Below, piece after piece: positions 2,548 to 35,627 of a DNA stretch of 60,567 bases (position 1 is its first letter; each line of letters opens with the position of its first letter). The translations under genes were made by a program, and so were the position numbers. The notes under the pieces were generated by a model. The model searched no databases. It saw nothing but the letters and a program-made list of their open reading frames with translations, and was not told the DNA's origin. Location of the stretch: assembly GCF_900102365.1 (NCBI RefSeq), contig NZ_FOIN01000012.1:1-60567 (forward strand), read 5' to 3'. Source of the DNA: Thomasclavelia cocleata (GTDB lineage Bacteria; Bacillota_I; Bacilli_A; Erysipelotrichales; Coprobacillaceae).

Positions 2548-3033
2548 ATTTAAATATAGTACATGCTGCTATTAAACCAACCCTGATACAGGAAAAGGTG
2601 TTGAATGGAAAAAGTTTCAATACATCTTATGTTGTTATTAAACACACTGTCCGCACGGAATATCTATATATGCATTATGTTTCAATACATCTTATGTTGT
2701 TATTAAACCAGAGTACAGATATGTTCCTAATCGTGTTAGCGGGTTTCAATACATCTTATGTTGTTATTAAACTTCAATATTGTTCCTGAATTTGTTCGCA
2801 TGTCTCGGTTTCAATACATCTTATGTTGTTATTAAACTTTTTTGAAAAATACTGGTACTGGTAATGCAATCTAGTTTCAATACATCTTATGTTGTTATTA
2901 AACTAATTTCCTATTGTATCTTTGATAGGTACATCGTGTTTCAATACATCTTATGTTGTTATTAAACTTTCTAAGTAACATAGCTAAATCACAAGACTCA
3001 CGGGTTTCAATACATCTTATGTTGTTATTAAAC
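2548..3033 (-). CRISPR. CRISPR array: 7 perfect 30-bp repeats plus one decayed terminal repeat
   Basis: Perfect repeats are at 2614-2643, 2679-2708, 2743-2772, 2808-2837, 2874-2903, 2938-2967 and 3004-3033. On the + strand each reads GTTTCAATACATCTTATGTT followed by GTTATTAAAC. The spacers are 34-36 bp and all differ. A further copy at 2548-2577 matches at about 21 of 30 positions, which is the usual decay of the oldest, leader-distal repeat. On the - strand the repeat ends in ATTGAAAC, the 8-nt 5' handle typical of type I-B and III crRNAs. Decay at the left, the handle, and a promoter at the right (3063-3090) all agree that it is transcribed leftward. No cas gene lies in the window. Confidence 0.97.
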
Positions 3034-3230
3034 CCTAGTAAATAAGCCACTTTTCATATTCTATTATACCCCTAAACCTTTATATATCAACACTTTTCTA
3101 TTTTTTTACCAGGCAATTTTATTTTTTTATATTTTTTAGTAAAATCCCTTTAACTTCTTACTCTCCCAACAGTTTTAAAAATTTCACTGCAAAATACGGC
3201 TGGTAAAAATCACTGATTTCTACTCTTTCA
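3034..3230 (-). promoter_or_regulatory. CRISPR leader with promoter
   Basis: Read leftward, TTGATA (3090-3085), a 16-base gap and TATAAT (3068-3063) form a near-consensus sigma-A promoter. It would start transcription about 25 bases before the first repeat. Further upstream the - strand reads TTTTGCAGTGAAATTTTTA (around 3195-3178), resembling the 'TTTGCAGTGA' block seen in leaders of many type I-B arrays. The stretch from 3034 to 3230 is therefore taken as the leader. Confidence 0.8.
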
Positions 3231-7951: not shown

Positions 7952-10172
7952 GTCCTAATTCCTCCTTTGATAACTGTGAATAAGCAATCTCTTGATATAC
8001 CTTACAGTCTTTCATCAACTCATCATGTTTACCCTTACCAACAATTCTACCTTCATCCAAAACAATAATCTGGTCTGCAGACATTATTGAGGCAATTCGT
8101 TGTCCCACAATCAAGACAGTATTTTTAGTCTTTTTAATCATTTTATTCAGTTCTTGTCGCAACATAGCATCTGTTTTAAAATCAAGTGCTGAAAAACTAT
8201 CATCAAAAATAAAAATTTCAGGATTTTTAGCTATTGCTCTAGCAATTGCTAAACGTTGCTTTTGACCACCAGAAACATTCGTACCACCTTGCGATATCTT
8301 AGAATCAAGATGTTCTTCTTTATGATCAATAAATTCTTTAGCCTGAGCAACTTTTATAACTTCTTCTAATTGTTCATCAGTAGCATCAGGGGAACCATAA
8401 GTTAAATTAGATCTAATAGTACCAGAAAATAATAATCCCTTTTGAGGAACTAATCCAATCTTATCTCTTAAATCATGTTGTTTAACATCACGAATATCGA
8501 CCCCATCAACCATAATACTTCCTTCACTAACTTCATAAAATCTTGGAATCAAGTTAATTAAGGTACTCTTACCTGAACCAGTAGAACCTATAAATGCTGT
8601 TGTTTGTCCTGGTTTAGCAGTAAAACTAATATTTTCTAATACTGCTTCATGAGCACCAGGATATTTAAAAGTAACATCTTTAAATTCAACTAAACCACGT
8701 TTATCATTATTAAAAGATTTTGCTACTTTTGGATCAACGATTTTTGGTTCCATAGACAATACTTCATAAATACGTTCTGCTGCTACACTAGCTCTTGGTA
8801 ACATAATTGCAATCATCGCAATCATTAAAAATGACATAATTATCTGCATCGCATACTGCATAAATGCCATCATTTGACCAATCGCAATATTTCCTAAATC
8901 TATCTGTTTTGCTCCATAATATACAATCAATAAACTAACCACATTAAAGATAAACATCATTATTGGCATCATTGATACCATCGTACGATTAACAAACAAA
9001 TTTACCTTTGTTAAATCAAAATTTGCTTTTTCAAATCTTTTTTCACTATGTTCTTCATTTCCAAATGCACGAATAACTAACATTCCAGATAAATTTTCAC
9101 GCATTGTTAAATTAAGTCTATCAATCAATGATTGAACTACCTTAAACTTAGGCATAACAATTGCAAATGTAACTCCAATTAATACAAAAATAATAACTAA
9201 TACCAAGCCAATAATCCAAGTCATTGATGGAGTATTTTGAAATGCCTTAATCAATGCACCAATTCCCATCATTGGTGCAAAACAAACAATTCTAATGAAC
9301 ATAATTACAACCATTTGAACTTGTGTAATATCATTTGTTGTTCTGGTAATTAATGATGCAGTTGAAAACTTATTAAATTCTTCATTTGAAAAACTCTCAA
9401 CCTTTTTAAAAACATCTCCACGTAATAACCTAGAAATACCTGAACCAATCTTACTAGCTAAAAATCCACAAGCTATTGCACAAACTGTTCCAGCAAGAGC
9501 AATTACAAGCATTTTAATTCCAGTTGCTAAGATATAATCATTTTGAACCTGATCTACATCTCTTCCAAGTCTAGTATATTCAGCTTTAACTCCATTTCCT
9601 GCAGCAATTTTTAAAGTTGATTCTCCCATTGCTTCCATCTGATTATCAATTTCAGTAAACATTTCAGCTCTCTGTTCTTTTGGCAACATTGCTAAAACAT
9701 CATAAGGACTCATTCCCGCAGGTAAATTTCCAAATCGTTCTTGATATTCTTTAGAATTTGGATCCATTGTATCAATTGAAGTTATTAATAACATTGGTTT
9801 AACCAAAATCTTTTCTAATTTATCCATATCCTTATCATTAACATCCTTTAACAAATAAAGATTTTGACCATCAGCTTTAGAAAATTTATCTAAAATATCT
9901 TCATCTACATCATTAGCTTTCACTAATTTATAAGACTTTTCAAATGTTTCCTGATCTTTATTATCCATTAATACTAATAAATGATTATAAGTATCTTCAC
10001 TTAAAACATCACTTACTGCACTATCAAATCCTCCTGCTTGAATTCCTACAGAAACGATATCTGACATGTAATCAGGCAATGCTAATTCTGTTTGTGACTG
10101 TAAAAAAAGCAATCCAATACAAAACAGAATTGGTATCCAAAACTTTTTAAAATAATGTTTTAACTTAAGCAT
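7944..10172 (-). CDS. heterodimeric ABC exporter, degenerate-site half with large outer loop
   Basis: 742 residues. After one membrane segment (about 10-30) comes a long hydrophilic, presumably extracytoplasmic region of roughly 180 residues, and then five more membrane segments (from about 215). The nucleotide-binding domain has Walker A 'GSTGSGKST' near 528 and signature 'VSGGQKQRLAIARA'. Its Walker B reads 'IFIFDDSFSALD', with Asp in place of the catalytic Glu; the His-loop reads 'IVGQRI' with Gln in place of His. This is the signature of the non-catalytic site of asymmetric exporters, so the pair makes one working ATPase site. The ATG overlaps the stop of the MarR gene by one base (TAATG). 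Confidence 0.9.
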   Translation of the reverse strand: MLKLKHYFKKFWIPILFCIGLLFLQSQTELALPDYMSDIVSVGIQAGGFDSAVSDVLSEDTYNHLLVLMDNKDQETFEKSYKLVKANDVDEDILDKFSKADGQNLYLLKDVNDKDMDKLEKILVKPMLLITSIDTMDPNSKEYQERFGNLPAGMSPYDVLAMLPKEQRAEMFTEIDNQMEAMGESTLKIAAGNGVKAEYTRLGRDVDQVQNDYILATGIKMLVIALAGTVCAIACGFLASKIGSGISRLLRGDVFKKVESFSNEEFNKFSTASLITRTTNDITQVQMVVIMFIRIVCFAPMMGIGALIKAFQNTPSMTWIIGLVLVIIFVLIGVTFAIVMPKFKVVQSLIDRLNLTMRENLSGMLVIRAFGNEEHSEKRFEKANFDLTKVNLFVNRTMVSMMPIMMFIFNVVSLLIVYYGAKQIDLGNIAIGQMMAFMQYAMQIIMSFLMIAMIAIMLPRASVAAERIYEVLSMEPKIVDPKVAKSFNNDKRGLVEFKDVTFKYPGAHEAVLENISFTAKPGQTTAFIGSTGSGKSTLINLIPRFYEVSEGSIMVDGVDIRDVKQHDLRDKIGLVPQKGLLFSGTIRSNLTYGSPDATDEQLEEVIKVAQAKEFIDHKEEHLDSKISQGGTNVSGGQKQRLAIARAIAKNPEIFIFDDSFSALDFKTDAMLRQELNKMIKKTKNTVLIVGQRIASIMSADQIIVLDEGRIVGKGKHDELMKDCKVYQEIAYSQLSKEELGHE

Positions 10173-29927: not shown

Positions 29928-30023
29928 TTAAAAAAGAGCCCACACTTATCCAGACTCTTGCCCAGACGGTCGGCTCTTCCATGATTATACTCCCTGTGGT
30001 TAATTCCACTTCCGTCAGTCGTA
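29928..30023 (-). promoter_or_regulatory. ZTP (pfl) riboswitch with terminator, upstream of the purine operon
   Basis: Read leftward from 30022: CGACTGACGG, a small GTGG-AATTAA-CCAC hairpin, AGGGAGTATAAT, then GAGCCGACCGTCTGGGCA (29976-29959). These are the two conserved halves of the pfl motif: the CGACTGRCG..CCAC.GGGAG half and the 'GCCG.CCG.CUGGGC' half that binds the nucleotide. GAGCC of the second half can also pair with GGGCTC (29941-29936), which is followed by a T run, giving an intrinsic terminator that the aptamer would prevent. ZTP/ZMP accumulates when 10-formyl-THF is short, so it fits control of fhs and the pur genes. Confidence 0.9.
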
Positions 30024-30034
30024 TAACTATTTGC

Positions 30035-35384: not shown

Positions 35385-35627
35385 CCATAAAATAAAAGCC
35401 CCTTAGCTAATGCTAAGAGACGAAATTTCCGCGGTACCACTCTCATTGATATAATAACTTATATCCTCTTTTGTCTGTAAAGTAGACTTACTAACCATCC
35501 TACTATTAATTCAAACAGTCCTCTTAAAAGTGCGGTTCATTTAATCTTATTTACTGACCTTCCACCATCATCAGCTCGCTTAGAAACATAATTAAACTAC
35601 TCTCTTTATCGACGAGTTTATTTATAT
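35385..35627 (-). promoter_or_regulatory. T-box riboswitch, specifier CGC (Arg)
   Basis: Read leftward: a stem I region with GATAAAGAGAGTAG, the distal-loop block AGCGAGCTGATGATGGTGG, then the T-box AGAGTGGTACCGCGG (35444-35430), which pairs with tRNA NCCA, and a terminator TCTTAGC-ATTA-GCTAAGG followed by a T-rich run (35420-35390). In stem I the helix TTTAAT/ATTAAA is followed by T-GAA-C-CGC-A (35540-35531). Aligned with C-GAA-A-GGC-A of the B. subtilis glyQS leader, the specifier is CGC at 35534-35532, an arginine codon. Uncharged tRNA-Arg would favour readthrough into the transporter operon. Confidence 0.92.

What the first reader, a model, noticed from the sequence alone, without database searches (positions are those of the whole stretch)
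2548..3230. Orphan, still promoter-driven CRISPR array without cas genes
Seven perfect repeats, one decayed trailer repeat and a near-consensus promoter 30 bp before the first repeat give a fully oriented array, with the ATTGAAAC handle of type I-B/III systems. No cas gene lies within at least 57 kb to the right or 2.5 kb to the left. The uniform repeats and the intact leader suggest that the array is still used by Cas proteins encoded elsewhere, or only recently lost them.
Basis: partly seen in the sequence, partly recalled or inferred. Interest (0 to 1): 0.55.

Follow-up and report, generated by a model that had tools for sequence, protein, structure and literature searches.

The report
Remote CRISPR array with working leader
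A Gram-positive bacterium, probably from the gut, keeps several CRISPR memory arrays away from its one matching set of CRISPR genes; [quoted passage not shown]

Summary
The array is real: seven identical 30-nt repeats, six spacers of 34-36 nt, a decayed eighth repeat and a leader with an 11/12 promoter, on the minus strand. It is an orphan only locally. The genome has a complete type I-B operon on another contig, beside an array whose repeat differs by one base, plus two more live and two near-dead arrays of the same family. The window leader is 83-87% identical to the four other recognisable ones. Recent cas loss is rejected; use in trans is best supported, though no RNA data exist.

The site is old: three related species keep 1-2 decayed repeats there. 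Three of seven spacers match proteins of gokushovirus-like Microviridae.

New detail: a two-box leader, TTTACCAG-N85..88-CTGGTAAA, ending 69-72 bp before the first repeat, in four genera. All 13 scored live arrays have both boxes, 0 of 6 near-dead ones do. I propose it anchors spacer integration. Multi-array I-B systems with inverted leader motifs are known in Clostridioides difficile, so this is a new member of a known kind.

The parts
2548..2577 (-). decayed trailer-end repeat (21/30 identical to the repeat)
2578..2613 (-). spacer 7 (trailer end), 36 nt; no target found
2614..2643 (-). repeat 7 of 7 (counted from the leader), exact
2644..2678 (-). spacer 6, 35 nt; encodes NAYIDIPCGQC in the coding sense, matches the replication initiator (VP4) of gokushovirus-like Microviridae at protein level; no YCN beside the site in 7 placements
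2679..2708 (-). repeat 6, exact
2709..2742 (-). spacer 5, 34 nt; antisense to VP1 (EYRY.PNRVS), same protospacer start as spacer 2 of array C24; YCN motif 5' of the site in 7 of the 8 best placements
2743..2772 (-). repeat 5, exact
2773..2807 (-). spacer 4, 35 nt; antisense to VP4 (FNIVPEFVRMS), 5 mismatches to MG945586.1; no YCN motif in 6 placements
2808..2837 (-). repeat 4, exact
2838..2873 (-). spacer 3, 36 nt; no convincing target
2874..2903 (-). repeat 3, exact
2904..2937 (-). spacer 2, 34 nt; no target found
2938..2967 (-). repeat 2, exact
2968..3003 (-). spacer 1 (leader end), 36 nt; same protospacer as spacer 10 of the cas-linked array but opposite strand (33 of 34 identical); target unknown
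3004..3033 (-). repeat 1 (leader-proximal), exact
3034..3207 (-). leader, shared with four other leaders of the genome and with relatives of the genus
3063..3068 (-). promoter -10 TATAAT
3085..3090 (-). promoter -35 TTGATA
3105..3112 (-). leader proximal box CTGGTAAA, 71 bp before repeat 1
3200..3207 (-). leader distal box TTTACCAG, inverted copy of the proximal box, 87 bp away

Best explanation
[quoted passage not shown] Shown: a full I-B operon lies on another contig; the arrays share repeat and leader; decayed repeats mark the same site in three related species. Inferred: the leader promoter transcribes the array on the minus strand, Cas6 of the distant operon cuts the repeats into crRNAs with an AUUGAAAC 5' tag, and Cascade-Cas3 use them against the double-stranded replicative DNA of gokushovirus-like Microviridae. 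Also inferred: Cas1-Cas2(-Cas4) of the same operon add spacers here in trans, guided by the leader, in which two inverted boxes about nine helical turns apart anchor the integrase or a leader-bending protein.
For: Complete I-B operon in trans: PADLOC hits to Cas6b, Cas8b, Cas7b, Cas5b, Cas3b, Cas4b, Cas1b, Cas2b. Repeat identical to array C52 and one base from the cas-linked array. Leader 83-87% identical to the four other recognisable leaders. Cas8b and the leader are found in the same 6 of 9 genus genomes; of the other three, G008 has an I-B-like Cas3 and a 3-repeat array with both boxes, while G004 and G006 have only a 40-41% Cas1 relative, weak Cas3 matches and no exact box pair. Downstream of the same neighbour gene G002, G003 and G007 hold 1-2 decayed repeats, so the array was kept here while relatives lost theirs. 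None of 46 spacers matches any of 158 spacers of five relatives (best score 15, shuffles 14-17), so remote sites were refilled. Window spacers 4, 5 and 6 match VP4, VP1 and VP4 better than 60 of 60 shuffles. Spacer 1 and a cas-linked spacer share a protospacer. Boxes: 13 of 13 live against 0 of 6 near-dead arrays. A survey reports similar acquisition for arrays with identical repeats regardless of distance from cas (PMC12814883, passage).
Against: No RNA, interference or acquisition data. The 5' tag ends in C here and in T in the cas-linked array. Of the 3 matched window spacers only spacer 5 has a YCN motif beside its relatives' sites; spacer 4 has none in 6 and spacer 6 none in 7 placements. 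No exact protospacer was found; four degenerate scans of viral contigs were empty. In C. difficile, new spacers were seen in only 2 of 12 arrays although every leader had the inverted motifs (PMC8406132, passages), so boxes would be needed but not sufficient, and this array might be read but not extended. The decayed repeats in relatives show that the site is dispensable. Turnover could come from recombination between arrays. The 13-against-6 count is not corrected for shared ancestry. NCBIfam gave no family for Cas8b (PADLOC did).
Confidence: 0.85

Rival explanations
1. The array is a relic: perhaps still transcribed, but no longer processed, used or extended.
For: At the same site G002, G003 and G007 keep only 1-2 decayed repeats; the genome itself carries two near-dead arrays, C62 and C48.
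Against: Seven identical repeats, promoter and both boxes intact here, while all six scored near-dead arrays have lost at least one box; a full I-B operon is present.
Confidence: 0.07
2. The type III-A (Csm) complex of contig C37 is the main user of these crRNAs, loaded after processing by Cas6.
For: A III-A locus is present, with Cas10, Csm2 to Csm6, Cas6 and Cas1. Sharing of I-B crRNAs by type III effectors is recalled from other organisms, not looked up here.
Against: III-A has its own array with an unrelated repeat, and none of its 17 spacers passes the microvirus test. Spacer 6 has the coding-strand sequence, so its crRNA could not pair with that mRNA.
Confidence: 0.05
3. The leader boxes are operator sites of a transcription factor that controls array expression, not part of spacer integration.
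For: They lie upstream of the promoter and are symmetric; no protein has been shown to bind them.
Against: In the G012 and G032 leaders I see no TATAAT in the last 71 bp while boxes and distances are kept (sequences, judged by eye). C62 keeps promoter and proximal box, has a damaged distal box (6/8) and one intact repeat.
Confidence: 0.3

Closest known systems
Clostridioides difficile type I-B multi-array system (PMC8406132; abstract and passages seen)
   Same: Type I-B, many dispersed arrays (12 in strain 630), leaders with two conserved inverted repeat motifs upstream of every array, YCN interference PAM.
   Different: Other genus and other spacers. Their motif sequences and spacing (Fig. 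S6) were not seen, so I cannot say whether the boxes are the same. Interference was shown there for almost all arrays and acquisition for two; nothing is tested here.
Type I-F leader of Pseudomonas aeruginosa with inverted repeat motifs contacted by Cas2 (PMC12259127; passages seen)
   Same: [quoted passage not shown] suggests how two far-apart boxes could be bridged.
   Different: Other subtype, uses IHF and Cas2/3; motif sequences and spacing were not compared here.
Microviral prophages in Erysipelatoclostridium isolates (PMC9239249; passages seen)
   Same: Independent evidence that microviruses occur in bacteria named Erysipelatoclostridium. The named relatives with this leader are an Erysipelotrichaceae bin and strain VE202-01.
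   Different: Prophages there, CRISPR spacers here. No prophage capsid match was found in 60 relatives, a search without a positive control. That the window's genus is Erysipelatoclostridium (Thomasclavelia) is my inference; no call names it.

Membership tests
CRISPR array | identical direct repeats of about 23-47 nt with unique spacers of similar length (definition recalled) | tested here: met
   7 x 30 nt, 6 spacers of 34-36 nt
CRISPR array | spacers derive from mobile elements | tested here: met
   3 of 7 spacers match microvirus proteins better than 60 of 60 shuffles; the other 4 have no match
CRISPR array | transcribed and processed to crRNA | not testable with these tools
   promoter only
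Type I-B system (trans-served array) | cas8b, cas7, cas5, cas3, cas6 and cas1-cas2-cas4 in the genome | tested here: met
Type I-B system (trans-served array) | repeat and leader match those beside the I-B operon | tested here: met
   one base differs in the repeat; leader 87% identical over 185 bp
Type I-B system (trans-served array) | common PAM for spacers of remote and cas-linked arrays | tested here: inconclusive
   YCN in most placements for 9 of 14 spacers with placements, background 0.106; of the three window spacers only spacer 5; several of the nine share a protospacer, so they are not independent
Type III-A array | repeat shared with the III-A locus | tested here: not met
   the III-A array repeat is unrelated
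Orphan array in a genome without matching cas genes | no matching cas operon anywhere in the genome | tested here: not met

The most novel reading that the evidence does not exclude
Type I-B leaders in this family carry a phased two-box anchor (TTTACCAG, 85-88 bp, CTGGTAAA, then about 71 bp to the repeat) that licenses spacer acquisition. Losing the distal box ends growth of an array, and in this genome the dispersed leaders are kept alike by concerted evolution, so that one Cas1-Cas2 can serve them all.
Probability: 0.45. Interest if true: 0.55.

Novelty: new member of a known kind. Interest (0 to 1): 0.4.

Why it matters
It turns an apparent orphan array into a clear case of one cas operon serving several old chromosomal addresses. 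It gives a sequence-level rule, two boxes at fixed distances, that separates live from near-dead arrays and can be tested directly, and it adds spacer evidence that gokushovirus-like Microviridae infect this lineage of Gram-positive bacteria.

Tried and rejected
Recent cas loss: rejected, a full I-B operon is present. cas genes hidden in the window: none in 50 of 52 ORFs of at least 80 aa. Rfam: no CRISPR family at gathering threshold. Plasmid targets: weak matches only. Four degenerate patterns for the targets of spacers 5, 1, 4 and 6 found nothing in viral contigs; a VP1 profile then brought 80 loci, of which only L101 was used (62% identity to the first VP1; the others 43-49%). Spacers 1 and 3 searched alone gave only chance-like hits. 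Spacer 6 alone: the longest hit was a Microviridae replication initiator, but Streptococcus phage Dp-1 gave a better E-value over 20 nt. Microvirus prophage in the genus: none by Pfam model (nothing rang in the controls) or by VP1 alignment in 60 relatives, both without a positive control, so absence is not shown. Repeat hairpin: not more stable than shuffles. Exact leader-repeat pattern in named genomes: 3 stretches.

Weak points of counts. One search used 23 Microviridae loci chosen partly because they matched spacers or the peptide; the shuffles and the III-A spacers (0 of 17) answer this in part, and spacer 6 also passed on an earlier set of 10, with a record found (score 51, highest of 20 shuffles 32). 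'Gokushovirus-like' is my label: the records say Microviridae, two of them Gokushovirinae. One search used 15 spacers named by me, four of which had not passed (C52_s2, C52_s5, C52_s13, C24_s4); C46_s12 had no placement; each list was cut at the 8 best placements. All four coding-sense spacers in that list (W_s6, C52_s1, C52_s13, C24_s5), and W_s4, lack YCN. The binomial figure assumes independence, which does not hold. One search left out G003_cas and G007:C119 (contig ends), G003_x (assembly gap), and the G008 and other-genus leaders (found by exact boxes); it counts G005 with a 7/8 proximal box as having both. In one search the group of this genome's leaders was named after searches had shown their likeness; the three site groups came from flanks before the tree.

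Full report
Observation. The array is at 2548-3033 with its leader at 3034-3207, read on the minus strand: seven identical 30-nt repeats, six spacers of 34-36 nt, and a decayed eighth repeat behind a seventh spacer. The promoter TTGATA-16-TATAAT ends 29 bp before the first repeat. No cas gene was found in 50 of 52 ORFs of at least 80 aa in the window. The window is a whole contig, C43 of 88.

The genome. The repeat family occurs at five other places: C52 (16 repeats plus a decayed one, repeat identical to the window's), C24 (8 plus one decayed, one base different), C46 (14, one base different), C62 (one plus one decayed) and C48 (two decayed). C46 lies directly behind a complete operon cas6-cas8b-cas7-cas5-cas3-cas4-cas1-cas2 of type I-B. 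Other systems are a III-A locus with Csm6 and its own 18-copy array, a type II-A locus with csn2, and a second Cas9 locus, both with their own arrays. Repeat and leader therefore assign the window array to I-B.

Age. Flanks show that array sites are shared between species: the cas-linked site with G001, G002, G003 and G005; C52 with G002, G003 and G007 (for G007 only the left flank was testable); C24 with G002 and G007. Within 1500 bp downstream of the orthologue of the window array's neighbour gene, G002, G003 and G007 keep one, two and one decayed repeats (25-28 of 30 identical) with an eroded leader and no intact box; G001, G005, G006 and G008 have none. G002 also matches upstream of the next gene; G003 and G007 do so only on the side of the neighbour gene. 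G004 gave no orthologue. None of 46 spacers of this genome is shared with 158 spacers of five relatives. So old sites have been refilled although only one of them lies beside cas1-cas2, which is the best comparative evidence for acquisition in trans; exchange between arrays is the alternative.

Leaders. Within this genome the five recognisable leaders are 81-92% identical over 185 bp, against 68-82% to leaders of relatives other than the distant G001 (59-65%). In a tree they group by genome (support 90/90, 91% of 200 bootstrap trees; holding them together is not rejected, p 0.49), and grouping by shared site is rejected for C52 (p 3e-5), C24 (p 8e-4) and the cas site (p 3e-3). For this genome that looks like concerted evolution; gene conversion and selection for fit to the resident Cas1-Cas2 are not separated. 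It does not hold everywhere: the leaders of G002, G003 and G007 do not group by genome (3, 2 and 2 changes), G003 and G007 leaders at the C52 site are 95% identical, and those of G002 and G007 at the C24 site 99%.

Two boxes. Of 17 leaders of the genus, 15 have an exact TTTACCAG about 174 bp and 16 an exact CTGGTAAA about 79 bp before the first repeat. A search of 196 relatives with the gap free from 80 to 95 found 17 genomes; the backwards control found one. Outside this genus, 8 of 17 places lie before a CRISPR array (G010 four, G012 three, G032 one); there the gap is always 85-88 and the first repeat starts 71 bp after the boxes. The other 9 places have no array, with gaps of 81-93 (two of 88, one of 87). 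Inside the genus the distance is 69-72 bp. Between this leader and five leaders of four other genomes (G008, G010, G032 and two of G012), the sequence between the boxes is at the level of shuffled sequence (0.49-0.60 against 0.52-0.58), and that from box to repeat is at or somewhat above it (0.56-0.72 against 0.55-0.59). The three other genera have I-B-like Cas3 (39-43% identical) and Cas1 (69%); G008 has the Cas3 (54%), but its Cas8b and Cas1 were not found in a 410-contig assembly; G023 and G042, with boxes but no array, have neither Cas3 nor Cas1 matches. Scored arrays with three or more repeats have both boxes in 13 of 13 cases, near-dead ones in 0 of 6 (Fisher p 4e-5, not corrected for shared ancestry). 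C62 is telling: promoter and proximal box intact, distal box damaged, one intact repeat; G002:C25:18964 likewise lost the distal box, though its promoter is damaged too.

Targets. Against 23 Microviridae loci, spacers that beat 60 of 60 shuffles by at least three points were 3 of 7 (window), 3 of 13 (C46), 1 of 16 (C52), 4 of 8 (C24), 0 of 1 (C62) and 0 of 1 (C48), that is 11 of 46; controls from the same genome were 0 of 17 (III-A), 0 of 6 (second type II) and 3 of 10 (II-A). By position, the 11 fall in VP1 (7), VP4 (2) and VP3 or scaffolding protein (2); 8 are antisense and 3 in coding sense (with the annotations). Window spacer 1 and cas-linked spacer 10 take one protospacer from opposite strands, as do C46 spacer 7 and C24 spacer 3. 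A YCN motif stands 5' of the matching site in most placements for 9 of 14 spacers (background 0.106), which fits the C. difficile I-B PAM (PMC8406132, abstract); of the three window spacers only spacer 5 shows it.

Literature seen. PMC8406132: abstract and passages. PMC9239249, PMC12814883, PMC12259127, PMC3396285, PMC8549365: passages. All others: search listings only. Searches for a CRISPR study of the genus under two names and for Microviridae with CRISPR spacers in Erysipelotrichia listed nothing on the point by title; that is no proof of absence. In some searches (concerted evolution or gene conversion with CRISPR leaders) I saw no title on it; two listed papers hold the phrase 'concerted evolution' only in their references, but PMC3396285 does report a promoter-like leader element nearly invariant in 37 arrays of six Pyrobaculum species and suggests repeat mixing by recombination between arrays, which is close to what I see here.

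Verdict. An ordinary, well-supported case of a remote array of a multi-array I-B system. The two-box leader rule and the leader likeness within the genome are the parts worth following.

Noticed in passing
L027 (G000:C37), L026 (G000:C46:36000-50000), L032 (G000:C65), L025 (G000:C46): The genome holds four CRISPR-Cas systems: I-B, III-A with Csm6, II-A with csn2, and a second type II with a 1081-aa Cas9 and an unassigned 290-aa protein near cas1.
   Followed up: partly
L026, array at about 8751-9460: Three of ten spacers of the II-A array also match microvirus proteins, so two different effector types target the same phage group; the III-A array has none in 17.
   Followed up: partly
L029:9176-9229 (array C24): One 54-nt spacer, at least 17 nt longer than the others of this array, antisense to VP1 and overlapping the target of another spacer in the same array.
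   Followed up: no
L028, array C52: Two adjacent spacers (13 and 14) are identical, and spacers 2 and 5 are variants of one sequence (28 of 32 identical), probably one VP4 site.
   Followed up: no
L090 and L096: G002 and G007 share a 99% identical leader at the C24 site, the most alike pair; recent transfer or assembly contamination (G007 contamination 7) is possible.
   Followed up: no
window 29953-30032 and 35413-35621: ZMP/ZTP riboswitch and T-box leader, both on the minus strand, in a region with purine, glutamate, asparagine and carbamoyl-phosphate synthesis genes.
   Followed up: no
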